Below are positions 3,322 through 52,055 of a stretch of 64,000 bases of DNA, one piece after another. Source of the stretch: Halolamina sediminis (GTDB lineage Archaea > Halobacteriota > Halobacteria > Halobacteriales > Haloferacaceae). The stretch is taken from NCBI RefSeq assembly GCF_001282785.1, contig NZ_CVUA01000001.1, forward strand, positions 868,001 through 932,000, read 5' to 3'. Numbering within the stretch: position 1 is the first letter of the stretch; each line of letters begins with the position of its first letter. Made by a program: the position numbers and the translations under genes. The notes under the pieces were generated by a model, which made no database searches, was not told where the DNA came from, and saw nothing but the letters and a program-made list of their open reading frames with translations.

Positions 3322-3396
3322 CGAAGCGTCCTGACGAACACCCCCGACCGCCCGCGACTGCGACCATTTTTACCCCCACCGCTCCCCACACTACCC

Positions 3397-5271: not shown

Positions 5272-5277
5272 GGCCCG

Positions 5278-6888: not shown

Positions 6889-6931
6889 CGAGCGCCGGAA
6901 CACCCAACACCACGCCGGCTGAACGGCCGCT

Positions 6932-7366: not shown

Positions 7367-7381
7367 CGTTCGAACCGCGCC

Positions 7382-8212
7382 TCAGCGCCGCAGTTCGTCT
7401 TCCTCGTCGAGTTCGTCGAGCAGCTCCTTCCGTTCCTCGAGCTGGTCGGTCGCGCGCCGGAGCACGCCAAGCAGCGTGGTGACCTCGCGGTCGGTCGGCT
7501 TTACCCGGCCCAGCAGCCGGCGGAACATCCGCTCGGTCTTCTCGTGTTTGTGCTCGCGGTGGCCCATCGCGGTCAGGAACTCGTCCCAGTAGTCGTGCAG
7601 CCGCTCGACCTCGTCGGGCCCCGCGCGGTGTGGCTCGGTGTCGGGCAGTTGGGTGCCGTCAAGCGTGAGCTTTCGGAGCTCGTACAGGGTGACGGTCGCC
7701 GACTGCCCGAGGTTCATCACGGGGTACGCCTCGCTCGCGGGGATCGAGGCGACCTGATCCAGCCGTTCGAGCTCGTCGTTCGCGAGCCCCTTGTCTTCGC
7801 GGCCGAACACGAGCGCGACGGGGGCGTCGACGTCGCGGAGTTCGTCGACGAGATCGACGGGCGTGCTGTAGGGAAACCGGACGTGCTTGCGGCTGTCCTC
7901 GCCCGTGATCGCGGTGAAGCCGACCGTGTGGTAGTTCGCACACAGCTCGTCGAACGTGAGCTCCTCGGCGCCGGGGAGCACGTCCTGCCGGGCGTGGCCC
8001 GCAAATCCGTACGCCTCGCCGTCGGGCTCGATCTCGGGCGGATCGATCAACAGCAGGTCCTCGACACCGAAGTTCTTCATCGCCCGGGCGATGGTGCCGA
8101 CGTTCCCGGGGGTCTGGGCGTCGACGATACAGACCGAGATGTCGGGCCCGCCCTCGCTGCCGGCCGCCCCGCTCCCCGTCTCGGCGTCGTCGGACCGCTC
8201 TCCCTCGCTCAT
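7382..8212 (-). CDS. trmJ: tRNA/rRNA 2'-O-methyltransferase, TrmJ type (SPOUT)
   Basis: 276 residues. The SpoU/TrmH knotted fold is shown by three motifs in order: PGNVGTIARAMKNFGVEDL (about 35-53), LVFGREDKGLANDELE (about 135-150) and YPVMNLGQSATVTLYELRK (about 162-180). TrmJ modifies position 32 of tRNAs in archaea and bacteria. A charged helical C-terminal extension (MFRRLLGRVKPTDREVTTLLGVL) matches TrmJ relatives. The first 22 residues are a low-complexity acidic lead typical of halophiles. The ATG overlaps the stop of the upstream gene (ATGA), so the two are coupled. Confidence 0.88.
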   Translation of the reverse strand: MSEGERSDDAETGSGAAGSEGGPDISVCIVDAQTPGNVGTIARAMKNFGVEDLLLIDPPEIEPDGEAYGFAGHARQDVLPGAEELTFDELCANYHTVGFTAITGEDSRKHVRFPYSTPVDLVDELRDVDAPVALVFGREDKGLANDELERLDQVASIPASEAYPVMNLGQSATVTLYELRKLTLDGTQLPDTEPHRAGPDEVERLHDYWDEFLTAMGHREHKHEKTERMFRRLLGRVKPTDREVTTLLGVLRRATDQLEERKELLDELDEEDELRR

Positions 8213-8787
8213 CCGCTCCCGGGGTAGTCGGTGTCCAGATCCAGATCAGACACGTCGAGCTCCTCGCTCTCCTCCTCGTCGCTCTCTGGCGCCCGCAGGT
8301 CGTAGCGCTTCTCCTCGAACTCGACGGACTGCTCCAGCCGGCGCTGGGCCTCCTCGGGGGTCGGGAGGTTCGGCAGCTCGCCCGGCGACTCCTCGACGTG
8401 CTCGTCGGGGCCGTACCCCTCGGGGGCGCGGTTGTCGGCGACGAACCACTCGTGGAACTCGTCGCGGAACCGCTCCTCGCCCGCGAGCTCGCTGCCGCCT
8501 TCCTCGCGGAACCAGTAGAGGAAGTCCGCCTCGTGTTCGTTACACAGCAGCACCTCGTCCCCGGGTTCGCCGTAGACGATCGCCGCGGGGTTGGCGCGCC
8601 GCTTCGCTTCCTCGCCGTGTTCGAGGTAGCAGGCGTCGCAGGGCTGATCCATCAACAGGCCGAGACGCAGGAGCCGGTTCCGGGCGTCGTCGGGCATGTC
8701 GTCAAGCGGCGCCCACTCCCCGTCGTCGGTGAACACCTCTTCCTCGTCGAACCGCCAGCCGCGAAGGCCGACGCTCACTTTCGCCAT
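8209..8787 (-). CDS. Conserved haloarchaeal protein with a Cys zinc-site candidate
   Basis: 192 residues, strongly acidic. It begins MAKVSVGLRGWRFDEEEVF and carries CDACYLEH at about 51-58 and LLCNEHEADFLYWF at about 81-94. The three cysteines with nearby histidines could bind one zinc. The last third is a disordered Asp/Glu-rich tail (ESDEEESEELDVSDLDLD). I cannot assign a function. Its overlap with trmJ (ATGA) suggests a partner in RNA modification or at least co-translation. A TrmJ accessory role would be inference only. Confidence 0.7.
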   Translation of the reverse strand: MAKVSVGLRGWRFDEEEVFTDDGEWAPLDDMPDDARNRLLRLGLLMDQPCDACYLEHGEEAKRRANPAAIVYGEPGDEVLLCNEHEADFLYWFREEGGSELAGEERFRDEFHEWFVADNRAPEGYGPDEHVEESPGELPNLPTPEEAQRRLEQSVEFEEKRYDLRAPESDEEESEELDVSDLDLDTDYPGSG

Positions 8788-8878
8788 TACCGTGCGTTCC
8801 CGCTACGCGGGCAAAAAGGGCGCGCTCCCGGTCCGGGGCGGCGCACACTCTCTTTACCCTGCCCGCCGAAACACGCCC

Positions 8879-30871: not shown

Positions 30872-31122
30872 TGTCGGGGGGAGACAATCAGCGTTCCCCT
30901 GTGACGCGCCGTCGCGGCGACGAGTTGAATGCCAGCCCAGTAGCTCACCGCCGCGATAGGGCGAACAGGCGGCGCGATCGCTCCACGGAGGGTGCGCCGC
31001 GCTCCCGCCTCGGCCGCTCCGTGGTCGTGCTCAGACGACGACGGGGTTGGTCCCGTCACCGTACTTGAACGCCGGGGTGGCTGCTCCGGCGGCGTTTTAC
31101 CGTTCGGCCGCCAACGCCGCCT

Positions 31123-39083: not shown

Positions 39084-40094
39084 ATGACCCTGCCGGAGAC
39101 CGTCACGGACCACCTCGACGGCGAGGAGCCGGTCGCGGAGGTCGACCTCGGCGGCGAGGATCGACTGTTGGTCACGCCGACCCGAACGCTCGTCTACCGC
39201 GCGGAGGGGCTGCTTTCCGACGAGACCGTCGAGGCGTACCCCCACGACGCCGAGCGCATCACGCTCACCACGAGCCGCCGGAAGGCGAAGCTCACCCTCG
39301 ACTACGGCCTCGACGGCGAGGAGACGCTCTCGGTGCCGAAGGCGAAGATCGACGAGGTGCTCCACCCGCTGCTCGCCGGGGTGCTCGACGCAAACGGGAT
39401 CACCGACCCCGGCGAGACCGTCAAGCGGACGTTCCGGTTTTCGGAGCTCACCCTGATCGTCACCGACGAGCGCGTCGTCAAGCACATCGGACAAGCCCTC
39501 TGGGACGAGGAGTTCGAGGAGTACCCTTTCGAGAACGTCACCGATCTCGCGTTCGAGCCCGGCAACGTCGCGACCAGCGTCGTCCTCACCCACGACGGCC
39601 GGCAGGAGCGGTTCAAGGCGCCGAACGACGACGCTCGCGCGGTCGAGGCGGCGATCACCGACGCGCTGCTCTCCTACCACGACGTTCGTGACCTCGACGA
39701 ACTCCGGGCGGAGACCGCCGACGAGGAGGTGGACGACGCCGACAGCGAGGCCGGCGAGGACTCGCCGTTCGGCGAAGGTCCAGAACTGTTCGGCGAGGAG
39801 GAGTCAGTCGCGACGGAGACCGACCCCGACGACCAGTCCGAAGACGGTGTGTCCGACTCGGACGACGACACCGACCAACTCATTCGGCAGGTCGAGGAAG
39901 CCACCGACGACGAGCCCGCGGAGGGACCCACCCACGCCGATGTCGGCTCTCCCGGAGACGAAACTCCCGATACCGCCAACCTCGCGGCCGAGATCGACGA
40001 GCTCCGCGACGCCGTCGAGAGCCAGCAGGCCGAGCTCGAACGACAGAACGACCTGATCGAACAGTTGATCGAAGAGCTCCGGCAGGGCCGCTAG
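39084..40094 (+). CDS. PH-like domain protein with acidic coiled-coil tail (DUF7115-like)
   Basis: 336 residues. Two beta-rich PH-like repeats fill about 1-200: EDRLLVTPTRTLVYRAEGLL with AYPHDAERITLTTSRRKAKL, then ELTLIVTDERVVKHIGQALW with VVLTHDGRQERFKAPNDDAR. Then comes an Asp/Glu/Ser-rich stretch of about 80 residues and a C-terminal coiled coil (IDELRDAVESQQAELERQND). The fold resembles bacterial YdbT-like or short PH domains. It might act at a membrane surface, but no signal or helix is present. I recall it as haloarchaeal DUF7115; not verified. Confidence 0.72.
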   Translation: MTLPETVTDHLDGEEPVAEVDLGGEDRLLVTPTRTLVYRAEGLLSDETVEAYPHDAERITLTTSRRKAKLTLDYGLDGEETLSVPKAKIDEVLHPLLAGVLDANGITDPGETVKRTFRFSELTLIVTDERVVKHIGQALWDEEFEEYPFENVTDLAFEPGNVATSVVLTHDGRQERFKAPNDDARAVEAAITDALLSYHDVRDLDELRAETADEEVDDADSEAGEDSPFGEGPELFGEEESVATETDPDDQSEDGVSDSDDDTDQLIRQVEEATDDEPAEGPTHADVGSPGDETPDTANLAAEIDELRDAVESQQAELERQNDLIEQLIEELRQGR

Positions 40095-40969
40095 GGCTCC
40101 TCGCCGCGCTGATAGGCGTCGATCGCCGGCTCGTACCCCTCGTACACCGACGGGTACTGTGGCTCGTACCCCAGTTCGAGCAGCCGGTCGTTCCGACAGC
40201 GCTTCTGACTCGCGACCCGCAGCGACGCCGGCCCGTCCAGCCCGTCTAGCCGCTCCTCGACGGTCAGTTTCTCCGGCGCCGGCACGCCACAGCGCTCGGC
40301 CAGCCAGTCGGCGAACTCCCAGCGGTCCACGGGCGTGCCGTCGCAGACGAGTATGGTCTCCTCCCGTGCCACGTCCTCGGTCAGGAACCACGCCAGTGCG
40401 CCCGCGGCGTCGTCACGATGGACGGAGTTCCGCCAGCCTGCGGTCACCGAGTCGAGGTAGGCGTCGATCCGGTAGCGCCCGGGCCCGTAGAGCCCGGCGA
40501 ACCGGGCGACGGTGCAGTCGATGTCGCTCCGGTGGACGATCGCTTCCGTCTCGGCGATCACGGTCGCCTTCGGCCGCTCCGGGTCGATCGCCGTGGACTC
40601 GTCGACCCAGTCGCCGCCGTGGTCGCCGTAGACCCCGGTCGTGGAGGTCAGAAACAGTCGATCCGGCGGCGACTCGCGCCCCTCGAACTCGGAAACGATC
40701 GTGCGGAGCCCGTCGACGTACAGCGCTCGCGCCTCCGCGACGCTGCCGCGCCCCGCCGAGGCCGCGAACACCAGCGCGTCGGCGTCGGGCAGCGCCGAGA
40801 TGGCATCCGGGTCGGTCAAATCCCCTCGAACGGGCTCGATCCCCTCTGCCGAGAGGCTATCGGCGCTGGACTTCGATCGAACGACACCGGTCACGTCGTG
40901 GCTGGCGTCGAGCAGCCGCCGGCCGAGTTCGCGGCCGACGTAGCCACAGCCGAGGACGAGAACGTGCAT
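40091..40969 (-). CDS. NAD(P)-dependent epimerase/dehydratase-like SDR protein
   Basis: 292 residues from ATG 40969. Rossmann motif VLVLGCGYVGRELGRRLL at the very start and VRGDLTDPDAISALPDADAL as the second strand-loop. The extended-SDR active-site triad is altered: the Tyr-x-x-x-Lys segment is read as TSTTGVYGDHGGDWVDEST, with YG but no close Lys. It therefore belongs to the atypical YeeZ-like SDR5 group. The substrate is unknown. The ATG overlaps the stop of the upstream gene (ATGA) and the two stops around 40094 are interleaved with the PH-like gene. Confidence 0.85.
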   Translation of the reverse strand: MHVLVLGCGYVGRELGRRLLDASHDVTGVVRSKSSADSLSAEGIEPVRGDLTDPDAISALPDADALVFAASAGRGSVAEARALYVDGLRTIVSEFEGRESPPDRLFLTSTTGVYGDHGGDWVDESTAIDPERPKATVIAETEAIVHRSDIDCTVARFAGLYGPGRYRIDAYLDSVTAGWRNSVHRDDAAGALAWFLTEDVAREETILVCDGTPVDRWEFADWLAERCGVPAPEKLTVEERLDGLDGPASLRVASQKRCRNDRLLELGYEPQYPSVYEGYEPAIDAYQRGEEP

Positions 40970-41394
40970 CAGCGTCGGCCGTCGATGTACGCCTGGATCG
41001 CGGCGAACTGTTCGAGCGTGGTCGGGAGTCGTCCCTCGATCGCCTGCTGGATCTCCTTCCCGTCGAGCTCGATGTCGGTCTCCCGGGCGACGGTGTCCAC
41101 GTCGACGACCGCGGTGGTCATCCCCATCAGGACGTGGTCGCGGGCCTCCCACGCGATGTCCTCGGCGTCGGGGGCACCCTCCGTCAGTGCCAACACCTCC
41201 GCCGCCTCCTCGACGGTGAGTTCGGGTTGTTCGCCCTCGCCGATCGCTTCGACGGTCGCCCGGTCGAGGCCGGTTCCCCCCACGACGGTGTCGACCCCCA
41301 GTTCGGCGACGGCCGTCGCGAGCTCCTCGAAGTAGGCGGCGTGGAACGCTGCCGGCGACGCCTCGCCGTCGGCCTCGACTGCGTCGTACAGCAT
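40969..41394 (-). CDS. Conserved helical haloarchaeal protein (DUF5791-like)
   Basis: 141 residues, all helical by pattern: SPAAFHAAYFEELATAVAEL, VEAIGEGEQPELTVEEAAEV and AWEARDHVLMGMTTAVVDVD. The last third, IELDGKEIQQAIEGRLPTTL and EQFAAIQAYIDGRR, has a helix-turn-helix-like spacing. From memory this layout is the haloarchaeal DUF5791. Coupling to the SDR gene through an ATGA overlap is the only functional hint. Confidence 0.7.
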   Translation of the reverse strand: MLYDAVEADGEASPAAFHAAYFEELATAVAELGVDTVVGGTGLDRATVEAIGEGEQPELTVEEAAEVLALTEGAPDAEDIAWEARDHVLMGMTTAVVDVDTVARETDIELDGKEIQQAIEGRLPTTLEQFAAIQAYIDGRR

Positions 41395-41430: not shown

Positions 41431-44400
41431 TTACTCCGGATTGTCGGTCGCTTTGCACGACTCGTCCCCGTCGACACCCGGGCAGGGCCACCCCGGCGAC
41501 TGCTCGTCGCGGTTCCCGTCCACGTCGCCGACGCCGGGCATCCCCGGCGGCACGACCGCGACGACGGTGGTCGACGCCTCGAAGTCGACACGTTTCCCCC
41601 GCCCGACCCGCTCGGCACGGCCATCCCTGTCAACGTCTAGGTGGGCCACGGTCCCGTCCCTGACGTACCGAACTGTCCCACTGCCGCCGTCGGGGGCGAC
41701 CCCTCGTGCCCGGAGGGCGAAGCGCTGGTACTCCCCGCGGACAGTGACGCTCCAGGCGTTCACCGTCGCGATCCAGCTGTACGGCGGCGGCGCGACGGGC
41801 ATCCCAGCCGGCAGCCGGGAGGCGCCGGTCAGCCTCCGGGTCGCTTTCGCGCTGGCGTTTTCCAGCGTTCCACTCAGCTCCGTCTGGGCAGTGTCCCGGG
41901 CCACCTGCTGCACCATCGATGCGGTGCGGTTGGTCGTCGCCGCGGGGACGCCGACCGCCCGCTCGGCGCTGAGTTCGCGGAGCCGTACCCGAACTCGGAC
42001 GCCCGCCTCGTCGGCCGTCGCCCGGTCGACACCGCGGGCCGCCAACGCGGCGGCGAACGGCGGAACGTAACTGCCGTTAGCCATCGCCTGCCCCCGGTGG
42101 CCCAGGGTCGGCCACCGATCGCGAGCGTCGACGACGGCCGCTCGACACGTCGATCGTTCCACGCCGGTTCCGTTCGTCGCGGCGGCACAGACAGCCCGCT
42201 CCGCTTCTTGGACCGAGTTTCCGACGGCAGCGGCCAGTTCGTCGCGGTTCGCGGCGAGCGCAGCCGACTCCTCGGACTGGTTCTCTGGGCTCGTCACGAC
42301 AGTCCGGTTCGCCGCGATCAGCGTCCCGGCGGCGGCGTCGAGGCTGACCTGCCGGCTGCCGCCACCCAGCAGCGTGTCGACGATCCCGGAGGCGGCGTCC
42401 CCGTACGGGAGCGCGATCCAGTTCGTCGTCCGCGCGGTCAAGGGGTGGGCTGACTCCCCGGCCGGCACGCTGGGCACCTGCCCGTGATCGACCGACTGGA
42501 GGGTGAGATACCCCGGGGAGGCGTCGGGCGTAATCACGATGTCGTCGTCCGACCTCCCCGAGTCGGTGTAGGCGTCGCTCGGCCGTCCCTCCGAACGGCC
42601 GCGTCCGAGTTCGATCAGTTCCGAGAGCCCGGCGGTCGCCCGGTCCCCGAGTTCGTCTTGGTAGTCGACGTTCCGGTCTCTGGTGTCGGCGGCGCGCGCG
42701 TCCAGTTCCGCGAGCACGCGGTCGAGGTACGCCGCGCGGGCGGCGACTCGCGCCCTGTCGGCGGCGCCGTCGTACGTCGCCGGCGCGTCGAGCAGTTCGT
42801 CCCGACGCTCACGAAGCGCCGCTGCCAGCTGAGCGCGGGCGTTCGCATCGCCGCTGGCGACCGCCGTCCGTGGAATCGACACCGAGACGTTCGCGACTTC
42901 GCGGCGGAGCTCTCGCAGGTCGGCGGTGATCCACGTGTCGATCCCACCCGGTCGCCTCCCGGTGATGGTCCGGCTCCGAACGAGCGTATCTCCGCCGCCC
43001 GCCGCGACCCGTTCGGCCACGGTGTCGGCGCCGCCGTTGGCGTCGAGAACCGCCTCGGCTGCCCGTTCGCGTGCGCCGTCGAGGTTCGGGCCGTCGAGCG
43101 CACCGCCGGGTTCGAACAGCGGTTCAGTCAGCCGGTCGGGCGCGGCGTCGTCTGGGTCGTACGCCGCGGTCGCGCGTACCGCGACGCGGGCGGTCTCGGT
43201 CCACTCGGCGCTTGTCGTTCGAACCGTCCCGTTCCGGCGCCAGTGCCGCTCGACCGTGTGGTGGGTCGTCACGTCCAGCACCCTGTCGACGACGGCCTCG
43301 GTGGAACCGGCCGGCGCGTCCTCGACGGTTCTGACGACCGTTCGCTCGCTCGTCTCCTCGTCTACCAGCGTCCAGTCGCGTAGCCGTGGCTCTGGCCTCG
43401 ATTCGATCGCTCGACTGCGAACCGTGACCCGGAGTTGGCCTCGAACGCGGTAGCTCCCGGCGGTCGACACGTCGTCGATCGAACCGAGGAACGCCCGATC
43501 GGCAGCGGCGTCCGGGGAGGCGTTGATCGGTGGATCGTCCGGTCGGCGTGGGGCGAACTCGCCCGGCGCCGGCTCGCTCGTGGCGCCGCCGACGGCGTTG
43601 GGGTTCACGAACGCCTTCGTCACGGCCGCGGCGTCGCCGTGGCGACCGCCGAGCACGTCGAGGACGCCGACCTTCACCGTCGCTACGTCCATCGCGCGTG
43701 CGCCGGCTGGATCGTGGCGCCCGAACGCGGCGCGCTGCTGGGCGAGCACTGCAGCGTTGGTCGAGAGTTCGACGTGGCGGTTCCCGAGCACGTTCCGAAT
43801 CGGCGTGCCGGCGTAGCGACCGTAGCCCCGCGCCATGGCCACCGCGGTCAGGCGAGTCGTCAGCCCTCGGGCGAGCCCCGGCCCGGCGAGCGCACCGCGG
43901 TTCAGCCGCCGCTCGTACGTGCTGGCCCGTCGGTGGAGCGCCAGCACCGGCGTCTCGACGGTGAACGTGACGTTCCGCCGCCGCTGGGCGATCGTCCGAT
44001 CCCCGTCCCGGGCTCGGACGGTGAGGTTTCGGATCGTCACACGCATCGCCGCCCCGCCGTCGACTGCCGTGATCCCGATGTCCGACTTCGCGCGTCGGAG
44101 CGAGGCAGTCGAGCCGTCGATCGGGGGGAGGTCGACGGTCGCCCTGACGCCGCCGCGCTCACGAGCCAGCTCCGACACGGACTCGCGGGCCGCGACGGCG
44201 ATCCGCAGCCTGAGCGCGTCGACGAACGGCCGGGAGTCGTTCAGCGCCCTCCCTGCCGCGGTGTCGGCCGGAGCCGTGACCGGCGTTCCGGCCGACTCGC
44301 GTGCGGCGTCCCGGACCGCCATTCGGAGCGCGGGCCGCGCGTCCCGGGTTACGCCGTCCATCGCGGCGGCCGCGGGTCGCTCGATCGAGGGATGTGTGCG

Positions 44401-44499
44401 ATCCGCGACTCCCGTCGCGTACACGGAGGCGCCGAGCAGCAGCAGGACGCCGACGAGCGCAAACGGAATCCGGCCACGGTCGTCGTCGGCGAAACTCAC
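41431..44499 (-). CDS. Giant membrane-anchored exported protein of the secretion/pilus cluster (DUF7286-like)
   Basis: 1022 residues from GTG 44499, which overlaps the previous stop as GTGA; a GTG at 44508 is nine bases further upstream. Near the N-terminus DDDRGRIPFALVGVLLLLGA is a charged, prepilin-like or signal-anchor segment. The rest is outside-facing, rich in Arg, Thr and Ala, with long helical parts and many potential N-glycosylation sequons (NLTVRA, NVSVSI, NRTVVT, NGSYVP, NRTASM). The C-terminus has a small domain with VVPPGMPGVGDVDGNRDEQS and two Cys (GWPCPGVDGDESCKATDNPE), possibly a disulfide. Likely role: structural or pseudopilin-like component. Confidence 0.72.
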   Translation of the reverse strand: MSFADDDRGRIPFALVGVLLLLGASVYATGVADRTHPSIERPAAAAMDGVTRDARPALRMAVRDAARESAGTPVTAPADTAAGRALNDSRPFVDALRLRIAVAARESVSELARERGGVRATVDLPPIDGSTASLRRAKSDIGITAVDGGAAMRVTIRNLTVRARDGDRTIAQRRRNVTFTVETPVLALHRRASTYERRLNRGALAGPGLARGLTTRLTAVAMARGYGRYAGTPIRNVLGNRHVELSTNAAVLAQQRAAFGRHDPAGARAMDVATVKVGVLDVLGGRHGDAAAVTKAFVNPNAVGGATSEPAPGEFAPRRPDDPPINASPDAAADRAFLGSIDDVSTAGSYRVRGQLRVTVRSRAIESRPEPRLRDWTLVDEETSERTVVRTVEDAPAGSTEAVVDRVLDVTTHHTVERHWRRNGTVRTTSAEWTETARVAVRATAAYDPDDAAPDRLTEPLFEPGGALDGPNLDGARERAAEAVLDANGGADTVAERVAAGGGDTLVRSRTITGRRPGGIDTWITADLRELRREVANVSVSIPRTAVASGDANARAQLAAALRERRDELLDAPATYDGAADRARVAARAAYLDRVLAELDARAADTRDRNVDYQDELGDRATAGLSELIELGRGRSEGRPSDAYTDSGRSDDDIVITPDASPGYLTLQSVDHGQVPSVPAGESAHPLTARTTNWIALPYGDAASGIVDTLLGGGSRQVSLDAAAGTLIAANRTVVTSPENQSEESAALAANRDELAAAVGNSVQEAERAVCAAATNGTGVERSTCRAAVVDARDRWPTLGHRGQAMANGSYVPPFAAALAARGVDRATADEAGVRVRVRLRELSAERAVGVPAATTNRTASMVQQVARDTAQTELSGTLENASAKATRRLTGASRLPAGMPVAPPPYSWIATVNAWSVTVRGEYQRFALRARGVAPDGGSGTVRYVRDGTVAHLDVDRDGRAERVGRGKRVDFEASTTVVAVVPPGMPGVGDVDGNRDEQSPGWPCPGVDGDESCKATDNPE

Positions 44500-45350
44500 G
44501 GTGACCACGTCCGGACGGAGATCTCGACGGTGTCCAGTTCGAGCGACGCCACAGCGTCGGTCGGGCTCCCACTGCCTCGGCGGAGGTCGCTCGCGACGCG
44601 GTCGGCCATCGCGGCCGCGATCCGGCTGTTCGCGGCGGTGGTGTCTCCTCGCTCGATCGCTCCCGCCGTCTCGACGCCGTACCGGGCGCTCACCCGTCGG
44701 TAGCGGTGCTGAACGAGCGCGTCGAGCGGCGGATCGTCGGCGAGCGCCAGTCGGCCCTTCTCGGGTGGGAGCAGTCCCGCGACCAGTGACGCTGCGACGA
44801 CGCGGCCGAGGCGTGCGAACCCACCTTCGGTCGCCGCGACCGACGCGTTCGCGGGCGGATCGACGCCGCTCGGTGCGTGAACCGTCGCCGCGTTTATGTT
44901 GGCGTCCGCCGGCGGCTCCGGACCGACGGCGAACGCTCGACCCATGTGGGCGTCGGGGTACGGCCGCCAGCGGACGACGACCCGGGTTCGGGCCGGCAGG
45001 CGTTCGACGACCGTCGCCCGAACCGCGGCCGCGAACCCCTCGCTGGTGCCAGTGAGTGCCTCACCGTCGACACGGACGGTCCGGACCGCGGCATCGGCCA
45101 GCAACGAGATGAGCGTCCCGTGGGCGACACGCTCGTACTCCGGGTTCGTGTCGGCGTCCCGGTCCCCCTCCCCGTCCGGCGCCGGCCGCAGCGTGTACGG
45201 TACGTCCGCGGTCGCCGCAGTCAGTGTCTCCGCGACTGGGTCGGCCCGGTCGGGCTCGTCGGTCGTGGGTGCCGGCGTACTGGTCACCGTGACCGCGGCC
45301 GCGCTGATCAACAGCAGGCAGAGACAGGCGTCGAGTGCGGTGGCACTCAT
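44496..45350 (-). CDS. Exported protein of the secretion/pilus cluster (DUF7284-like)
   Basis: 284 residues. MSATALDACLCLLLISAAAV is a hydrophobic leader or anchor. The exported part has VVERLPARTRVVVRWRPYPD and a second hydrophobic-like helix RLGRVVAASLVAGLLPPEKG. It ends VASLELDTVEISVRTWSP. The N-terminus overlaps the stop of the DUF7285-like gene by four bases and the C-terminus overlaps the giant gene. No catalytic motif is seen. It probably packs in the extracellular complex. Confidence 0.7.
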   Translation of the reverse strand: MSATALDACLCLLLISAAAVTVTSTPAPTTDEPDRADPVAETLTAATADVPYTLRPAPDGEGDRDADTNPEYERVAHGTLISLLADAAVRTVRVDGEALTGTSEGFAAAVRATVVERLPARTRVVVRWRPYPDAHMGRAFAVGPEPPADANINAATVHAPSGVDPPANASVAATEGGFARLGRVVAASLVAGLLPPEKGRLALADDPPLDALVQHRYRRVSARYGVETAGAIERGDTTAANSRIAAAMADRVASDLRRGSGSPTDAVASLELDTVEISVRTWSP

Positions 45351-45754
45351 CGGGACACAACCACCCGGAGCCAGCCGGACACCACTCGGCCGGGTGCGAT
45401 CCGTACCGGGACTCGCCGGCCCGCCGACTGGCTCTCCTCGTTCGGAGCAGGAGTGTCGCCGGCCGCCCAGTGCTGCGACCCGGCACGGAGCTCGACTCGG
45501 AGTGTCCAGCCCGTCGGTCCCTCGTCGACGGCTGCGCCGAGCCGGCCGGCCGACGCGACGCCGGCCGGCGCGACGGCGTCGTTGACTCGAGAGAGCGTCG
45601 GCTCGGCGACCTCGCGATCCGTGGTCGGGAGAACGCCGGCGAACACCGTCGCGTACAGCGACAGCCCGAGCCCGATCGCCGCCACGGCGACGAGCGTCGC
45701 CGTCGGCGACGCCTGCCCGCGGTCAAGCACCGACGAGCGTGGCGCGGTAGCCAT
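45347..45754 (-). CDS. Pilin-like membrane-anchored protein (DUF7285-like)
   Basis: 135 residues. After MATAPRSSVLDRGQASPTAT comes the hydrophobic segment LVAVAAIGLGLSLYATVFAG. The charged leader with RGQ before a 20-residue hydrophobic run is the class III-type signal found in archaeal pilins and pseudopilins, probably processed by a PibD/PilD-type peptidase. The rest is a beta-rich exported domain (WTLRVELRAGSQHWAAGDTP). It overlaps the DUF7283-like gene by 32 bases and the DUF7284-like gene by four. Confidence 0.72.
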   Translation of the reverse strand: MATAPRSSVLDRGQASPTATLVAVAAIGLGLSLYATVFAGVLPTTDREVAEPTLSRVNDAVAPAGVASAGRLGAAVDEGPTGWTLRVELRAGSQHWAAGDTPAPNEESQSAGRRVPVRIAPGRVVSGWLRVVVSR

Positions 45755-46187
45755 CCCAGCTCACCTCCCTGACGGCGATCTCGTCCGACGCGATCCACTC
45801 AGGCTCGCGCTCCCGTGCAGCTTCGACCGTGTCGCGGAACGCGTCGCGATCCGCGAACACCGTTCGCGGCGGTTCCCCGTCGAGAACTCGACGGAGCTTC
45901 CCGTCGTCGACCGTCACGACGGGGCCGAACGCGAACGTCGCCCGCGTGGTCCCGCGGCTGTTCCGCATCGAGATTCCGTGGGGACGGAGCCGGACGGCGT
46001 CGGCGCCGTGTTCGTGTGTCGCGCTTGATGGCGCGTCGCCGGCCGCGACCGAGTCGACGGTGTCTGCGACGCCCGCCGCGTCGGGCGCGGGGCGAGCGGG
46101 GAGCGTTCCGGCGACGGCGAGAAACGCCGCCGCGGCCACCACGAGACCGGCGTGCAACGCCGTCGAGTCGACTGGAGGTCCGATCAT
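45723..46187 (-). CDS. Exported protein of the secretion/pilus cluster (DUF7283-like)
   Basis: 154 residues. The N-terminal hydrophobic stretch STALHAGLVVAAAAFLAVAG is a signal anchor. The mature part has ISMRNSRGTTRATFAFGPVV and ends SWDGYRATLVGA. The ATG at 46187 lies 9 nt from the 30-nt conserved upstream motif, so this gene probably starts its own transcript as well as being read through from the F gene 39 nt upstream. Confidence 0.7.
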   Translation of the reverse strand: MIGPPVDSTALHAGLVVAAAAFLAVAGTLPARPAPDAAGVADTVDSVAAGDAPSSATHEHGADAVRLRPHGISMRNSRGTTRATFAFGPVVTVDDGKLRRVLDGEPPRTVFADRDAFRDTVEAAREREPEWIASDEIAVREVSWDGYRATLVGA

Positions 46188-46195
46188 GGGACGGA

Positions 46196-46225
46196 CTGGT
46201 TCCGGTTTCGTACTTGAACTCTCGG
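46196..46225 (-). promoter_or_regulatory. Conserved 30-nt promoter-position motif, copy 1
   Basis: The core on the plus strand is TTCGTACTTGAACTCT (46207-46222), so the minus strand reads AGAGTTCAAGTACGAA. The block matches 26 of 30 positions of 49914-49943 without gaps, and starts 9 nt before the start codon of the DUF7283-like gene. It sits in a gap of only 39 nt between genes. The A/T-rich part is at the TATA distance of a leaderless gene. Confidence 0.7.
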
Positions 46226-46226
46226 C

Positions 46227-47975
46227 TCAGAGTAGCGTGCCACCGGCGACGACCGCCGCGACGTAGGCTGCCGTCGCGGTGGGGAGTGCGAGCCCGACCC
46301 GGTAACCGAGCAGCGATCGATCGATCCCGCGCTCCAGCGCGGTCGCGAGCCCGGTCAAGGTCGCCGCGAGCAGGAGCACGTAGACGCCGACGATCGGCCC
46401 GATCGAGGCCGGAGCGAGCGCGGCCGATGCGGACGCACCGCTGCCTCCGAGCGCCCCGCCGGTACCGCCAGCGTCCGCGGGGATACGCCCTACCATCGCG
46501 ACGGAGACACCCCCGACCAGCGGGCCGAACAGCGCCGCCGTGTTCGAGAGTGTGCCGGTGATCGTCGCCAGCTCCCGACGCGCCTCGCGCTCGACGCGGG
46601 CGAGTTCACGGAGATGATCGCCCACGGCGACGAGCGCCTCCCCCGCCGGCGCGCCTTCCGTCGCCGCGAGGGCGAACAGCCGGCCGGCGTCCCGGGCTCG
46701 CGGGCTCGGCACGTCCCGGAGCGCTCCGAACCGGCCGAAGAACGCCTTCTCGACCGGAACCCCCAACCGCTCTCCCCGTTCCGCAGCGTCGGCCAGCAGG
46801 TCGCCGGCGTCGCCGGGCAGCTCCGCTGCGGTCTCCGCGAGTGCCCGTTCGACGGCCGTTCCGCCGGCGACTCGCCGACCGACCAGCGCCAGCGCGTCCG
46901 GCAGCCCCGACTCGATCTCCCGAACTTCCCGCCGAAGCTCCCGTGCGGGTGCGAACAGCCACAGCAGCGCGGCACCCGACCCGGCGCCGACGGCGACGAT
47001 CGAGGCTGCCCACGGCAGCACGAACAGACAGCCCGCGCCCGTGGCGACAGCCACGAACACGCCGAGCGCGGCAGCGCTCCGCCGGCGGTCGGGAACCGCG
47101 GGGTGGTCGCTATCGACTTCGGGTGGCGGGAACGAGACCGGCCGCCGGGCGAGCAGCCAACCGCTCGCGACGAGCAGCCCTGTCGGGAGAAGCAGATCGT
47201 AGAGCACCGTTAGCGTGCCGAGCCCGACGTTCACACCCGTGAGCCGTGCCGCGGGGAGCACGCCGACGAGCGCGAGCGGGAGCAACACGCCGAAGGCGTA
47301 CAGCCCCGTCAGCGGCGCCCGGATCTCCCCCGCGAACGACGCGGCACGCTCCTCGACGCCCGAGCGCACGGCCGAGAGCGCGCGCTCACAGCCGCGTTCG
47401 CGTGCGTCCGCGGGGGCGTCGGCGGCGTCGGCGACCAGCGCCGCGGCGCGTTCGATCTCCGGCGCCGTCTCGCCCCAGGCCGCGGCGAACGACGCCAACC
47501 CCGAGCCGGGCGTTCCACGGGCGTCGCGAGCGTGCTCGCGCAGCGAGTTGGCGAGATCGTCGTCGCCGGACCGCCCGGCGAACGCGACTGCCCGTTCCAG
47601 GCTCGGCTCCACCCGGAGCCGGAGCGTCAGCCGACCGAACAGCCCCGGCGCGTCGCCGACGGCACGGGTACGTGACAGCGCCGCGGCGGCGATCGGGGCG
47701 TTTCGGGCGGCGAGCAGCAGTCCCGTGCCGAGGACGACCGCGAGCGAGAGCAACGTGACTGCGCCGATCGCGACGGCGGTGAGGGTACCGGCGACCACGA
47801 TCAGGCTCCCGATCGCCTCGCTCGCAGCGACCAACTGCGGTGCCGCCGGCCAGTCGAGTTCCTCGCAGGCGTCACGCAGCGCTCCGTCGACGGCGGGTGT
47901 CCGTGGCCACGACGCCCCGACTCGCTCGACGAGCCGGGCGAACTGCTCCCGTCCGTCCGACGAGCGAGCTACCAC
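46227..47975 (-). CDS. Type II/IV secretion system F (PilC-like) membrane protein
   Basis: 582 residues from a GTG start. Two GspF/T2SSF domains are visible, each a cytoplasmic helical bundle followed by membrane helices. Domain 1 covers about 120-270 (LRVEPSLERAVAFAGRSGDD) and domain 2 about 375-520 (GLPDALALVGRRVAGGTAVE, LATITGTLSNTAALFGPLVG). Together with the ATPase it forms the inner-membrane platform on which a pilus-like fibre is assembled. The start overlaps the ATPase stop by seven bases, so the two subunits are made together. Confidence 0.88.
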   Translation of the reverse strand: MVARSSDGREQFARLVERVGASWPRTPAVDGALRDACEELDWPAAPQLVAASEAIGSLIVVAGTLTAVAIGAVTLLSLAVVLGTGLLLAARNAPIAAAALSRTRAVGDAPGLFGRLTLRLRVEPSLERAVAFAGRSGDDDLANSLREHARDARGTPGSGLASFAAAWGETAPEIERAAALVADAADAPADARERGCERALSAVRSGVEERAASFAGEIRAPLTGLYAFGVLLPLALVGVLPAARLTGVNVGLGTLTVLYDLLLPTGLLVASGWLLARRPVSFPPPEVDSDHPAVPDRRRSAAALGVFVAVATGAGCLFVLPWAASIVAVGAGSGAALLWLFAPARELRREVREIESGLPDALALVGRRVAGGTAVERALAETAAELPGDAGDLLADAAERGERLGVPVEKAFFGRFGALRDVPSPRARDAGRLFALAATEGAPAGEALVAVGDHLRELARVEREARRELATITGTLSNTAALFGPLVGGVSVAMVGRIPADAGGTGGALGGSGASASAALAPASIGPIVGVYVLLLAATLTGLATALERGIDRSLLGYRVGLALPTATAAYVAAVVAGGTLL

Positions 47976-49906
47976 GGCTCCCCACTCCCGTCGGTGCGAC
48001 CGTCGTCCTCCGCCCGGATGGCTGCCGGGCGCGTCACGCCGTCGGCGGCGAGTGACCGCAGGTGATCGGCCCGCGCGTTCAACGCCGTCAGCGTCTCGCC
48101 GTACCCCTCGCCCGGCGCCGCGAGATCCGCTAGCAGGCTGCTCTCGCCGCGGTCGAGCCGGTCGGTCGGTTCGAGCTCGCCGTCGTCGAGCGCGAACAAC
48201 GGATGGAGCTCGGTCCCGTCGTCGACTGATTCGACCTCCTCGATCGCGACTGCGCGCCGGCCGCGTTCCGTGTCGGCGACGGTGAGCACGAACCCCGTCG
48301 CGGCGAACGCGGACTCGCTCACGCCTAGATCCTCGATCATTCTGGTCCGGACTGCGTCGGCGCCGTCGCCGTGGACCGTGCCGAGCACCGTCCCCGAGGC
48401 CGCGCCGACGCGCATCGCCTCGTACAGCGTGCTCGCTTCCTCGCCCCTGACTTCGCCGACGATCAGCGCGCCCTCGCCGAGTCTGAGTGCGGTCCGGAGC
48501 GCGGATGCGGGGCTCGTCTGGGCGGAGTCGTCGTCGTCGCGGGCGACCCGGAGCGACTGCACGTCACGGCCCGCAGCACGGAGCGCCGCGGCCGGAAGTT
48601 CGGGAGTGTCCTCGATCAGTACCGTCCGCGTGGATCGAGGGAGCGCCCACAGCAGCGCGCCGAGCGTCGTCGTCTTCCCCGCGCCGCGTGCGCCGGCGAC
48701 CAACCCGGTCCCGCCGCGTTCGACCGCCAGGGAGAGCAGCGCCGCCGCCCGCGGCGTCAGGGAGCCGACGGCGACGAGCCGGGGGAGCGTCCATGGCTCG
48801 GCGTCGTGGCGCCGCACGGCGAACGCTGGCCCGGGCGAGAGCGGTCGGGTGACGCCGGCGATCCGCACCTCCTCGCGGTCGTCGGGCGGGCCGACGGGCA
48901 GCGTCGCGTCCACCTGTGGGGTCGCTCGCGAGAACGCGCGCCCGCTGCTCCGGCGGACCCGTGACGCGAGCGTCCCGACTCCCTCGGGGGTGAGCCGGAC
49001 GTTCGTCGGCATCGTCTCGTCGTCGACGACGACCCGGATGGGCGTCTCCGCCGCGGGTGCGGTGACGTAGACGTCCGAGACGCGGTCGTCCGCGAACAGG
49101 TCCGCGAACACGCCGTTGCCGCGCGTGTGCTTCCGGAGCGTCGCCGACAGCTCGGCGATCGGGGCGTCGGGATTCGCCACCTCCCGAACCGCACGGGCCG
49201 GAGCAAGATCACCACCCCCGTCGCGCTCCGCCAGTCGCTCCGCCGCGGCGTCGAGCAGTTCGAACGCGGCCGCGTCGAACGACGCCGACGCGGGCGTGAG
49301 GTGGTAGATCGCGTCCGATTCGGCCGCCGAGTCAAGCGCGTATTGCCGGACTGTCCCGCCGGTCGAGAGCGCCACCGTCTCGCGCAGTCGGGCGTCGGTC
49401 GGCGGCCGGTGGTCGATCCGGGATCGGGCGATCGCCGGCCCGCCGTGGGCACGCAGTGCCTCCTCGTGGTCGGCGGCCCGCTCAGCGCCCGCTGCGAGCC
49501 CGGTCTCCGCGGCAAGGCGGCCGATCGTGGCGGCGCGGCCAGTTGCGTCGCGGGCAGCCCGTAGCGGGGCCGTGCGCGCGGTCGCGGCGATCTCGGCGTC
49601 GTGGTGCTCGGCCAGTGCCGCGAACCGGCCGGCAGCGTGGAGTAGTCCGACGGCGCCGTCGGTGTACCAGCGTTCGTACCCCGCCGATCGGACGCGAACG
49701 GATTCGGCGTCCCGGTCGGCGAGTGCGTCGACGGCGGTCGCTCGACAGGCCGGCTCGGTCGCGAGGTCGCCGTCGCCGGGGCAGTCGTCGGCGTCGATAT
49801 GGAGTTCGACGCGGTTTTCGATCCCCGTCCCGGCGGGCTCGACGAACGCCGGCCGGCAGGCACACGCCCCGTCGTCGTCCTCGGCCCGCCACGGCAGCAG
49901 TGACAT
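47969..49906 (-). CDS. Type II/IV secretion system ATPase E (PilB-like)
   Basis: 645 residues. The catalytic part lies at about 290-560: Walker A LVAGARGAGKTTTLGALLWA, Asp box VLIEDTPELPAA, Walker B LRLGEGALIVGEVRGEEAST and His box LGTVHGDGADAVRTRMIED. It hydrolyses ATP to drive pilus or secretion-fibre assembly with the F protein. The first 40 residues have three cysteines (CACRPAF and DDCPGDGDL) that may bind zinc or link to the next domain. This is longer than a minimal PilB by an N-terminal domain of about 250 residues of unknown role. Confidence 0.92.
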   Translation of the reverse strand: MSLLPWRAEDDDGACACRPAFVEPAGTGIENRVELHIDADDCPGDGDLATEPACRATAVDALADRDAESVRVRSAGYERWYTDGAVGLLHAAGRFAALAEHHDAEIAATARTAPLRAARDATGRAATIGRLAAETGLAAGAERAADHEEALRAHGGPAIARSRIDHRPPTDARLRETVALSTGGTVRQYALDSAAESDAIYHLTPASASFDAAAFELLDAAAERLAERDGGGDLAPARAVREVANPDAPIAELSATLRKHTRGNGVFADLFADDRVSDVYVTAPAAETPIRVVVDDETMPTNVRLTPEGVGTLASRVRRSSGRAFSRATPQVDATLPVGPPDDREEVRIAGVTRPLSPGPAFAVRRHDAEPWTLPRLVAVGSLTPRAAALLSLAVERGGTGLVAGARGAGKTTTLGALLWALPRSTRTVLIEDTPELPAAALRAAGRDVQSLRVARDDDDSAQTSPASALRTALRLGEGALIVGEVRGEEASTLYEAMRVGAASGTVLGTVHGDGADAVRTRMIEDLGVSESAFAATGFVLTVADTERGRRAVAIEEVESVDDGTELHPLFALDDGELEPTDRLDRGESSLLADLAAPGEGYGETLTALNARADHLRSLAADGVTRPAAIRAEDDGRTDGSGEPW

Positions 49907-49913
49907 AGCGCGG

Positions 49914-49943
49914 CTGGTCCGGCTTTCGTACTTGAACTCTGGG
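49914..49943 (-). promoter_or_regulatory. Conserved 30-nt promoter-position motif, copy 2
   Basis: It carries the same TTCGTACTTGAACTCT core at 49925-49940 on the plus strand and lies 8 nt before the start codon of the ATPase gene, inside a 65-nt gap. Copy 1 has the same spacing. The two genes are the second ATPase-led unit and the exported-protein unit of the same cluster, so a shared activator or unusual basal element is implied. Confidence 0.7.
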
Positions 49944-49971
49944 CCGCGTGTCGCTGCGGTCCCGGCGTTGG

Positions 49972-50391
49972 TCAGCCCCGAACCGTGACGACCCGGCCGC
50001 CGTCGCCGCGAGCGAGGCCGAGCCGCAGTCGGTGATCCCCGGGCGTCCCGAACCGAACGGGGCCGTCCGGGGTTACGAGCGGGAGTGAAAGCCGTCGCGT
50101 TCGGGTCGCGCCGTTCCGGAGGCTGTACCGGACTCCACACGCGGGGTCGCAGTCGACGACGAACCGCTCCACGCCGACCGCCACCAACGAGTTCGCGGGG
50201 AGCGTGACCGTGAGTACCCGTCGTGCACCGGGATCGTCGGCGGCGAGCAGCGACTCCCCCGCCCGTTCAAGTCGGTTCACGTCGCGGTCGAGCGCCGCGG
50301 CCGTTCGGTCCGCCGCCGCCGCCTCGACTGCTGGCAGCGATACGGCGAGCAGCGCGGCCGCGAGCGAGACCGCGAGCAGCGCCCGGATCAC
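49972..50391 (-). CDS. Exported protein of the cluster (DUF7311-like)
   Basis: 139 residues from a GTG that overlaps the upstream stop (GTGA). IRALLAVSLAAALLAVSLPA is a signal peptide or anchor, then helix ADRTAAALDRDVNRLERAGE, then a beta domain with two Cys (FVVDCDPACGVRYSLR) that can form a short disulfide loop. It ends LRLGLARGDGGRVVTVRG. Context: second gene of the cluster, 65 nt before the ATPase. No enzyme motif is seen. Confidence 0.7.
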   Translation of the reverse strand: MIRALLAVSLAAALLAVSLPAVEAAAADRTAAALDRDVNRLERAGESLLAADDPGARRVLTVTLPANSLVAVGVERFVVDCDPACGVRYSLRNGATRTRRLSLPLVTPDGPVRFGTPGDHRLRLGLARGDGGRVVTVRG

Positions 50392-50837
50392 CGGAGCTCC
50401 CGGAGGCGCTCGCGCAGCCCCGACTCGGTAGATTCGTCGCTGCTACTCCCGTTCTCGGTATTGCTGTGAGCCTCGGCGTTACTCCCGTCGCCGACTGTCG
50501 GCGGTATCCCGCCTGAGTCCTCACTACCTCCTCGGGCGTCGAGAGCGTCGTCCGCGTCCTCGCTTCCGTCGAGGCGTCGTTCCAGGCGTTCGACCGCCGC
50601 GACGGCGGCGTCGGCACGCTGCTCGACCGACTCGTTCACCGCGGAGACGCCGCCGAGGAACCCCCTGACCGACTGTACCGCGGCCTCGAGCTCGTCGACT
50701 CTGGATTCGAGCGTCTCGATACGGGACTCGATCGCGTCGTCCTCGCTGTTGCTCCGCGCCGGATCACGCTGTTCCCCGTCGAGTGCGCGTTCGACGGCCG
50801 CGAGCCGTCGTTCCAGCGTCTCGTCGCTGTCGGGCAT
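50388..50837 (-). CDS. Coiled-coil protein, first gene of the secretion/pilus cluster (DUF7310-like)
   Basis: 149 residues, acidic. Residues 5-30 (ETLERRLAAVERALDGEQRD) and 40-62 (ESRIETLESRVDELEAAVQS) form coiled coils, followed by VEQRADAAVAAVERLERRLD. The Ser/Asn/Glu-rich tail is disordered. It probably links cytoplasmic parts of the machine. ACTTATCAC about 25-30 nt before the ATG is the likely promoter of the whole cluster. It diverges from cetZ across 84 nt. Confidence 0.72.
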   Translation of the reverse strand: MPDSDETLERRLAAVERALDGEQRDPARSNSEDDAIESRIETLESRVDELEAAVQSVRGFLGGVSAVNESVEQRADAAVAAVERLERRLDGSEDADDALDARGGSEDSGGIPPTVGDGSNAEAHSNTENGSSSDESTESGLRERLRELR

Positions 50838-50921: not shown

Positions 50922-52055
50922 ATGAAGACGGTCCTCGTTGGCGTCGGTCAGGCGGGCGGGAAGGTGGCGACAGCGCTGGCCGAGTTCGACGACGAGATGG
51001 GGTTCCACGCGGTGCGGGACGCCATCGCCGTCAACAGCGCGAAAACGGACCTCCGTGACATCCCGCTGGACACGGTGTTGGTCGGGCAGGACGTGGTGAA
51101 GGGCCACGGCGTCGGCGGCGACAACGAACTCGGTGCGGAGGTGATGGCGAACGACGCCGAGGAGGTGATGAGCGAGCTGAGCGGGAAGATCGGCTCCGAG
51201 ACCGAGGCGATCTTCGTGATCGCGGGGCTCGGCGGCGGCACTGGCTCCGGCGGCGCGCCAGTGCTCGCGAAGGAGCTGAGCCGGGTGTACGACACGCCCG
51301 TCTACGCGATCGGTATCCTCCCCGGCCGCGACGAGGGGTCGCTCTATCAGGCCAACGCGGGCCGATCGCTCAAGACGCTCGCCCGCGAGGCCGACGCGAC
51401 GATCCTGATAGACAACGACGCCTGGCGCGAGACGGGCGACAGCGTCGCCGAGGGGATGGCGGCGATCAACGAGAACATCGCCCGCCGGATCGGCCTCCTA
51501 CTCGCCGCGGGCGAGCCCGTCGAGGACCGCTCGCTCGGACTGGGCGGCGGCGGGCTCGACCGCGACGTGGCCCAGAGCGTCGTCGACACCAGCGAGGTGA
51601 TCAACACCCTCCGCTCGGGCGGGCTCGCGGCAGTGGGATACGCCGAGTCCGAGGCCAGCGAGGACCCCGACGAGAACGTCAACGTCGTCACGAGCACGAC
51701 CCGGAAGGCGCTGCTCAGCGGCACGAGCCTGCCGGGGGCGAGCGAGGCCGACGCCGCACTGCTGGTCGTCGCCGGTCAGCCCGATTCGCTCTCACGAAAG
51801 GGCGTCGAACGTGCCCGCTCGTGGGTGGAGGAGGAGACCGGCAGCATGGAGGTCCGCGGTGGCGACTTCCCGCTCGACACCGGCCGGATCTCGTCGCTCG
51901 TCCTGATGAGCGGCGTCGAGCGCTCCGACCGCGTCCAGGAGTTCATGGATCGCGCCGCCGACGCGCAGGCCGACTCCCACGACCGAACCGAGGGCCAGCG
52001 CAAGCGCGACGCCGCCGAGACGTTCCAGAACGACGAACTCGACGATCTGCTCTGA
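50922..52055 (+). CDS. cetZ: CetZ-type tubulin/FtsZ-superfamily GTPase
   Basis: 377 residues. Tubulin signature [20 protein letters not shown] at about 102-121; N-terminal GVGQAGGKVATALAEF and the GHGVGGDNELGAEVM loop that distinguish CetZ from FtsZ; T6-like NDAWRETGDSVAEG. CetZ proteins control cell shape and motility in haloarchaea rather than the division ring. No long unstructured C-terminus or FtsZ-type tail is seen beyond DDLL. A CTTAAGG box precedes it. Its divergent partner is the coiled-coil gene of the pilus cluster. Confidence 0.93.
   Translation: MKTVLVGVGQAGGKVATALAEFDDEMGFHAVRDAIAVNSAKTDLRDIPLDTVLVGQDVVKGHGVGGDNELGAEVMANDAEEVMSELSGKIGSETEAIFVIAGLGGGTGSGGAPVLAKELSRVYDTPVYAIGILPGRDEGSLYQANAGRSLKTLAREADATILIDNDAWRETGDSVAEGMAAINENIARRIGLLLAAGEPVEDRSLGLGGGGLDRDVAQSVVDTSEVINTLRSGGLAAVGYAESEASEDPDENVNVVTSTTRKALLSGTSLPGASEADAALLVVAGQPDSLSRKGVERARSWVEEETGSMEVRGGDFPLDTGRISSLVLMSGVERSDRVQEFMDRAADAQADSHDRTEGQRKRDAAETFQNDELDDLL

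What the first reader, a model, noticed from the sequence alone, without database searches (positions are those of the whole stretch)
41431..50837. Long overlapping minus-strand cluster for a pilus or secretion machine with a giant exported protein
The E ATPase and F membrane protein are clear. They are accompanied by five other membrane-anchored or exported or coiled-coil proteins, two with charged DRG-type leaders before hydrophobic segments (DRGQASP, DRGRIPF) and one of about 1022 residues. No classical pilin, prepilin peptidase or archaellum gene is present. The system is widespread in haloarchaea as DUF7283-7286/7310/7311 proteins (from memory) but its product is, to my knowledge, not described.
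Basis: partly seen in the sequence, partly recalled or inferred. Interest (0 to 1): 0.7.

Follow-up and report, generated by a model that had tools for sequence, protein, structure and literature searches.

The report
Known haloarchaeal type IV pilus locus
These genes encode a type IV pilus assembly machine already predicted in the literature for salt-loving archaea; new here is that its assembly motor, its set of anchored surface proteins and a separately encoded pilus subunit are kept or lost together across hundreds of archaeal genomes, although nobody has yet tested what the pilus does.

Summary
Eight minus-strand genes (50837 down to 41431) form a tight, conserved cluster: coiled-coil DUF7310, N-anchored DUF7311, secretion ATPase E, membrane platform F, and four more single-pass N-anchored proteins, DUF7283, DUF7285 (DRG|QASP), DUF7284 and DUF7286 (DRG|RIPF, 1022 aa). 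It is not an undescribed system. It matches the predicted "subclade 4F" archaeal type IV pilus (Makarova 2016) and the cetZ2-linked pilB2/C2 regulon (Brown & Duggin 2023): Cys-rich ATPase N-terminus, coiled-coil partner, divergent CetZ. A pilin family anchored on methanogen E/F loci has a member at G000:585,438. Across 393 genomes this E, DUF7286 and this pilin co-occur almost perfectly (103 have all three; pairwise Fisher p about 1e-83), and genomes without E carry truncated or broken DUF7286 and pilin remnants. In methanogens, homologues of DUF7311, 7285, 7284 and 7286 sit together, unlinked from E/F. Best reading: E/F assemble a filament of the trans-encoded pilin; the anchored proteins are minor pilins or an initiation/tip complex, DUF7286 being the likely tip adhesin. 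Function is untested.

The parts
50388..50837 (-). DUF7310 cytoplasmic coiled-coil protein, 149 aa; counterpart of the coiled-coil partner (arCOG07564) reported for haloarchaeal 4F loci
   Evidence: Pfam PF23991 2e-24; no membrane helix; coiled-coil component described in PMC4858521
49972..50391 (-). DUF7311, 139 aa, single N-terminal membrane anchor (MIRALLAVSLAAALLAVSL), no prepilin motif
   Evidence: Pfam PF23993 3e-40; homologous to the first gene of the methanogen module, hhalign prob 96.8, E 3e-10
47969..49906 (-). E: PilB/TadA-type secretion ATPase (PilB2-like), 645 aa, with Cys-rich N-terminus
   Evidence: T2SSE 1e-21; C15, C42, C54 invariant in 14 orthologues; closest solved chains are archaeal GspE 2oap, CpaF and FlaI; clade with methanogen partners 100/99
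46227..47975 (-). F: polytopic assembly platform (PilC/TadC-like), 582 aa, overlaps E by 7 nt
   Evidence: at least 7 hydrophobic helices; weak T2SSF 0.0045; hhalign to the methanogen F partner E 1e-49
45723..46187 (-). DUF7283, 154 aa, one N-terminal helix, no [KR][GA] cleavage motif in any of 15 orthologues
   Evidence: Pfam PF23954 1e-45; motif count; alignment
45347..45754 (-). DUF7285, 135 aa, class III (PibD-type) leader DRG|QASP: minor-pilin candidate
   Evidence: Pfam PF23956 7e-34; [KR][GA]Q in 44/45; homologous to methanogen gene 3, hhalign E 6e-9
44496..45350 (-). DUF7284, 284 aa, N-terminal helix then alpha/beta domain with a roughly 100-residue helical insert before the last strand; many relatives carry R[GA]|xSTVxD, this copy has lost the leader (MSATALD)
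   Evidence: Pfam PF23955 2e-87; AF2 pLDDT 87; alignment; methanogen homologue hhalign E 7e-12
41431..44499 (-). DUF7286, 1022 aa, leader DRG|RIPF then one helix, large extracellular part with 12 N-glycosylation sequons; candidate tip adhesin or giant minor pilin
   Evidence: Pfam PF23957 E=0; motif 45/45; AF2 pLDDT 75; C-terminal region conserved in methanogens; sequons
50922..52055 (+). Divergent CetZ tubulin-like gene, conserved neighbour (60 of 80 named loci)
   Evidence: PF21011 CetZ_C 1e-59; synteny; PMC9856176
49915..49936 (-). Internal leaderless-type promoter before E (TTCAAGTACGAAAGCCGGACCA, 8 nt before ATG)
46197..46218 (-). Internal promoter before DUF7283, same element; also found before the unlinked pilin gene at G000:585372

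Best explanation
The cluster encodes the assembly machine of one dedicated archaeal type IV pilus, the predicted subclade 4F / pilB2-C2 system. Inferred working: E hydrolyses ATP beneath the platform F, and together they extract a small pilin from the membrane and polymerise it. That pilin is encoded elsewhere (G000:C1:585,438-585,878; DERA|IEGLPVRLVVSLVVG followed by an Ig-like / DUF7382 domain) and is cleaved by the genome's PibD-type A24 peptidase. The single-pass proteins DUF7285, DUF7284 and DUF7286, with class III type leaders, and the uncleaved anchors DUF7283 and DUF7311, are minor pilins or pseudopilins that start the filament and cap it. DUF7286, large and carrying glycosylation sequons, is the likeliest tip protein touching a surface or another cell. 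DUF7310 is a cytoplasmic coiled-coil accessory, and the neighbouring CetZ may place the machine. Shown here by sequence: membership, conservation, co-occurrence and conserved leaders. Inferred: polymerisation, tip position, adhesion, cleavage, CetZ involvement.
For: E belongs to one strongly supported clade (100/99) with methanogen ATPases, apart from all other ATPases of these genomes. Methanocella-like genomes encode E, F and the pilin side by side, and in 11 genomes the pilin lies within 5 kb of E. Over the same 393 genomes, E versus DUF7286 gives 107/6/4/276 (both / DUF7286 only / E only / neither; Fisher 4e-83) and pilin versus E 106/4/5/278 (5e-84). The link holds inside one methanogen family (E-DUF7286 41/0/3/17, p 2e-12; pilin-E 39/0/5/17, p 5e-11) and inside haloarchaea (pilin-E 56/3/0/22, p 6e-17). 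Genomes without E show decay: G055 has a stop in both DUF7286 and pilin; G012 and G066 keep only the C-terminal end of DUF7286; G066 has no pilin; G012's pilin match lacks its N-terminal part. DUF7311, 7285, 7284 and 7286 have homologues arranged together in methanogens, E/F being elsewhere. Class III leaders are conserved and an A24 peptidase is present.
Against: No filament has been seen for this system in the papers found. Neither predicted fold (DUF7284, DUF7286) resembles a solved pilin. DUF7286 has Arg at +1, outside the strict published prepilin pattern (pattern recalled from memory). DUF7284 of this organism lacks a leader. Homology of DUF7283 to its methanogen positional counterpart is unsupported. 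G044 keeps intact DUF7286 and pilin without this E. CetZ adjacency is absent in 20 of 80 loci, some of them truncated contigs.
Confidence: 0.8

Rival explanations
1. A pseudopilus-type secretion machine (type II-like): E and F drive a short membrane-bound pseudopilus made by DUF7283/7285/7284/7286 that pushes DUF7286 or other proteins out; no long filament.
For: E, F, three or four pseudopilin-like genes and one giant exported protein resemble the GspE/F/G-K layout; no pilin gene in the window's own locus.
Against: A dedicated pilin with an extracellular Ig-like domain co-occurs with E in 106 of 111 genomes and sits beside E in 11. Archaea have no outer membrane or secretin to cross (general knowledge).
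Confidence: 0.1
2. A DNA-uptake or cell-cell contact apparatus (Com- or Ups-like) that uses the same pilin and giant contact protein.
For: Type IV filaments serve these roles in other archaea and bacteria; an adhesin-like giant protein fits cell-cell contact.
Against: No competence or DNA-transport gene was recognised in the locus; nothing specific supports it.
Confidence: 0.08
3. E/F of this locus assembles the general PilA pilins of the genome and has no pilin of its own.
For: PilB3-C3 can rescue a pilB1-C1 mutant in Haloferax volcanii (PMC6491452), so pilin sets can be shared; the genome has 8 Pilin_N genes over the curated cut-off.
Against: One separate pilin family tracks this E nearly one to one and decays with it.
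Confidence: 0.07

Closest known systems
Archaeal type IV pili of subclade 4F (Makarova, Koonin & Albers 2016, PMC4858521)
   Same: Cys-rich ATPase N-terminus, halobacterial coiled-coil partner, FtsZ-like gene nearby, stand-alone dedicated major pilin also linked through Methanocella E/F loci
   Different: In the main text read, the five-protein anchored set is not set out as a module conserved in methanogens; arCOG identifiers could not be checked here and supplements were not readable
cetZ2-linked pilB2/C2 regulon of Haloferacales/Halobacteriales (Brown & Duggin 2023, PMC9856176)
   Same: pilB2/C2 operon divergent from cetZ, flanked by a sugar epimerase and a hypothetical gene, as in the window
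   Different: They count about seven predicted pilins and see a possible mobile unit; here only DUF7285, 7284 and 7286 carry pilin-type leaders in the family, and the likely major pilin lies elsewhere in most genomes
PilB1-C1 and PilB3-C3 pili of Haloferax volcanii (PMC6491452)
   Same: E/F pair using pilins encoded in trans; adhesion phenotype known for these paralogues
   Different: In the window genome the other ATPases group outside the window E clade
Tad pilus (TadA-B-C-E-F-G; general knowledge, and PMC6668835 for its archaeal origin)
   Same: Order ATPase, platform, then several anchored pseudopilins ending in one large protein; E matches CpaF structures
   Different: Platform is one protein, not separate TadB and TadC; no secretin, TadZ or TadD recognised; no sequence homology of DUF728x to TadE/F/G detected by Pfam

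Membership tests
Archaeal type IV pilus, subclade 4F | ATPase in a clade with the methanogen (Methanocella-type) 4F ATPases and apart from other archaeal pilus ATPases | tested here: met
   Tree of 53 rows, clade 100/99; bit scores fall into two groups, >270 against <=160. The published tree itself was not re-run
Archaeal type IV pilus, subclade 4F | Cysteine-rich N-terminal extension of the ATPase | tested here: met
   C15, C42, C54 invariant and C17 nearly so in 14 orthologues
Archaeal type IV pilus, subclade 4F | Cytoplasmic coiled-coil component in haloarchaea (arCOG07564) | tested here: met
   DUF7310 present and coiled-coil; the arCOG number could not be checked
Archaeal type IV pilus, subclade 4F | Dedicated major pilin (arCOG02981), usually stand-alone, beside E/F in Methanocella | tested here: met
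   Pilin family found from Methanocella-like E/F loci; co-occurrence p 5e-84; identity with arCOG02981 is inferred
Archaeal type IV pilus, subclade 4F | FtsZ-family gene in the context | tested here: met
   CetZ adjacent in the window and in 60 of 80 named loci
Archaeal type IV pilus, subclade 4F | Frequent S-layer-like protein gene | tested here: inconclusive
   DUF7286 may be what was meant; no S-layer domain was recognised
cetZ2-linked pilB2/C2 regulon | pilB/C next to cetZ with epimerase arCOG03095 and hypothetical arCOG04674 | tested here: met
   CetZ 50922-52055, epimerase 40091-41020, hypothetical 39084-40094; CetZ subfamily and arCOG numbers not tested
Archaellum | FlaI/ArlI-clade ATPase with archaellin and arlCDEFGHJ genes | tested here: not met
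   No such gene matched among the cluster proteins and neighbours scanned
Tad pilus | Separate TadB and TadC, TadZ, secretin | tested here: not met
   Single F protein; no such genes recognised in the locus
Type IV pilin-like proteins | Prepilin leader cleaved by PibD | not testable with these tools
   Motif conserved and peptidase present; cleavage needs an experiment

The most novel reading that the evidence does not exclude
DUF7311, 7283, 7285, 7284 and 7286 form an ancient, conserved extracellular complex, shared by haloarchaea and methanogens, with folds unlike known minor pilins, that initiates and tips a pilus positioned by a tubulin-family protein; a new type of pilus tip or initiation machinery.
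Probability: 0.25. Interest if true: 0.6.

Novelty: already known. Interest (0 to 1): 0.38.

Why it matters
The locus type is published as a predicted pilus, so the find is not a new system. The added value is a closed parts list: an E/F pair, an anchored protein set and one pilin that are inherited and lost together in two groups of archaea, even when scattered around the genome. That turns a 'hypothetical' pilus of many haloarchaea and Methanosarcina-type archaea into something testable with a few deletions, and gives DUF7283-7286, DUF7310/7311 and DUF7382 a common working hypothesis.

Tried and rejected
A structure search with DUF7284 (Foldseek and VIA-align) gave no hit with E <= 0.001, and best Z 4.1 to ribosomal protein S3-like chains, which I treat as noise. 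DUF7286 gave only weak SecB-like beta-sheet matches at E about 0.03. A profile of F found no solved structure. DUF7283 against its methanogen positional counterpart is not supported (prob 14). Unrelated pairs used as controls scored near zero. The promoter element shared by E, DUF7283 and the unlinked pilin first looked like a pilus regulon; a genome scan found it at about a dozen other places, mostly in front of a multicopy RNA element, so I do not call it pilus-specific. A paper search for the DUF numbers found nothing.
Full report
What is there. The minus-strand frames from 50837 down to 41431 are all real. In order of transcription: DUF7310 coiled coil (50388-50837), DUF7311 (49972-50391), ATPase E (47969-49906), platform F (46227-47975), DUF7283 (45723-46187), DUF7285 (45347-45754), DUF7284 (44496-45350), DUF7286 (41431-44499, 1022 aa). 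Pfam gives strong matches for all but F. Gaps are -4, +65, -7, +39, -32, -4 and -4 nt. Two gaps hold near-identical leaderless-type promoters, before E and before DUF7283. A CetZ gene lies divergently at 50922-52055; a small conserved gene (40969-41394; I labelled it DUF5791 in my scripts from memory, not tested) and a sugar epimerase follow downstream. Nearest named relatives are Halolamina pelagica strains (71-73% identity over DUF7286).

E and F. E matches archaeal GspE, CpaF and FlaI among solved structures and has a conserved N-terminal cysteine group (C15, C42, C54). F has no Pfam hit of its own, only a marginal T2SSF match over its C-terminal half (E = 0.0045); it has at least seven hydrophobic helices and aligns end to end with the F next to the methanogen E (hhalign E = 1e-49).

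The anchored proteins. DUF7311, 7283, 7285, 7284 and 7286 each have one hydrophobic helix, at the N-terminus. Among 44-45 haloarchaeal sequences, DUF7286 keeps [KR][GA]R[IV]PF in 45/45 and DUF7285 keeps [KR][GA]Q in 44/45; DUF7284 has R[GA]|xST..D in many members but a lost leader in others, including this one; DUF7283 never has it (15 checked). So three families carry pilin-type leaders and two are plain anchors. Whether PibD cuts them is untested. DUF7286 has 12 N-glycosylation sequons. Predicted folds: DUF7284 is confident (pLDDT 87), an alpha/beta domain with a helical insert; DUF7286 is moderate (pLDDT 75). Neither matches a solved structure; a missing match does not show that the fold is new.

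Relatives. DUF7286 occurs in 224 of 292 Halobacteria genomes and in 113 of 393 genomes drawn from the phylum, including methanogen families where its C-terminal region is best conserved. In the methanogen loci L064, L065, L066 and L069, five anchored genes occur in the order DUF7311-like, X, DUF7285-like, DUF7284-like, DUF7286, with no E/F nearby (in L066 the DUF7286 gene is on the other side of an unrelated gene; in L067 and L068 only the DUF7286 part was in the stretch fetched). Profile comparison supports the match for DUF7311 (E 3e-10), DUF7285 (6e-9) and DUF7284 (7e-12), but not for X against DUF7283; two unrelated control pairs score near zero. E and F sit elsewhere in those genomes, and in Methanocella-like genomes a small pilin sits beside them.

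The pilin in trans. A profile from those two methanogen pilins finds one gene in the window's genome (E 3e-14) and in the eight other haloarchaea tested that carry DUF7286. The only match among seven haloarchaea lacking DUF7286 is weak (E 0.004) and falls inside a larger frame. A 12-member profile over 393 genomes gives a two-peaked result (best E-values below 1e-16 or above 1e-7). Counts (both / first only / second only / neither): DUF7286 and E 107/6/4/276; pilin and E 106/4/5/278; pilin and DUF7286 107/3/6/277; 103 genomes have all three. Related genomes are not independent, so the p-values overstate; but the link also holds within one methanogen family (DUF7286 and E 41/0/3/17) and within haloarchaea (pilin and E 56/3/0/22). 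The haloarchaeal exceptions are telling: G055 has stops in both DUF7286 and pilin and no E of this type; G012 and G066 keep only the C-terminal end of DUF7286; G066 has no pilin; G012's pilin match lacks its N-terminal part; G044 keeps DUF7285-7284-7286 next to CetZ after loss of 7310 to 7283. In 11 genomes pilin and E lie within 5 kb. The window's own pilin gene (G000:585,438-585,878 matched; ATG just after the promoter at 585,372) has a DUF7382 / Ig-like domain and a promoter of the same type as E and DUF7283. An A24 prepilin peptidase with its archaeal C-terminal domain is encoded at G000:51,721.

Tree. The window E, 17 other haloarchaeal E rows and 12 methanogen rows (some are duplicate fetches of the same gene) form one clade (100/99); haloarchaeal (98/99) and methanogen (95/94) members each group together, and the other ATPases of these genomes fall outside.

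What is known. Makarova et al. 2016 (PMC4858521) describe subclade 4F with these marks: Cys-rich ATPase N-terminus, a coiled-coil protein specific to haloarchaea, a dedicated PilA-family pilin mostly stand-alone but next to E/F in Methanocella, and an FtsZ-like gene nearby. Brown & Duggin 2023 (PMC9856176) describe the same locus type as the pilB2/C2 regulon next to cetZ2, with an epimerase and a hypothetical gene on the flank, as here, and propose a scaffold role for CetZ. No paper found reports a deletion of this pilB2-C2 system; supplements were not readable. PMC6491452 places H. volcanii PilB2 in 4C rather than 4F; I could not resolve that naming. Whether the pil-2 locus of Halobacterium salinarum (PMC4292770) is this system is also unclear.

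Verdict. The new parts are the near-perfect co-inheritance of E, DUF7286 and pilin, the co-decay cases, and the methanogen module. Function is inferred, not shown.

Noticed in passing
window 30958-31069 (-), and about 11 more copies in the same genome (loci L223, L224, L227, L228, L229, L232, L233, L237, L238, L239, L249): A multicopy element of about 110 nt: a promoter (TTCAAGTACGATGACGGGACCA), a GTGACCTGAGA-like start, two interleaved helices with different sequence in each copy (H-type pseudoknot in 10 of 12 copies; summed score 238 against 37 +/- 22 in shuffles), and a constant end CCTGTTCGCC. No Rfam match. It looks like an undescribed pseudoknotted small RNA family; not yet sought in other genera beyond the loci held.
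   Followed up: partly
window 49915-49936, 46197-46218 (-) and G000:585372-585393 (L221): The same promoter element precedes E, DUF7283 and the unlinked pilin gene, and also the small RNA elements and a Cas4-like gene (L230); it is a promoter class rather than a pilus-specific operator.
   Followed up: partly
L059 (genome G044), 2791-8814: CetZ is followed directly by DUF7285-7284-7286, with DUF7310 to DUF7283, including E and F, missing; the pilin is intact elsewhere. Either a recent loss or the anchored set works without this E/F.
   Followed up: partly
L062, L063 (genomes G057, G005): A second, divergent version of the whole cluster, without CetZ next to it but with the pilin gene divergently upstream; G057 carries both versions.
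   Followed up: partly
L196 9594-10597: Next to the E/F pair of a Methanocella-like genome lie an A24 prepilin peptidase and a DUF7311-like anchored protein.
   Followed up: no
L205 2457-3113, L206 362-1009: In Methanosarcina-like genomes a coiled-coil membrane protein with a weak DUF7310 match (22.8 bits, below cut-off, in L206 only) sits near the pilin genes.
   Followed up: no
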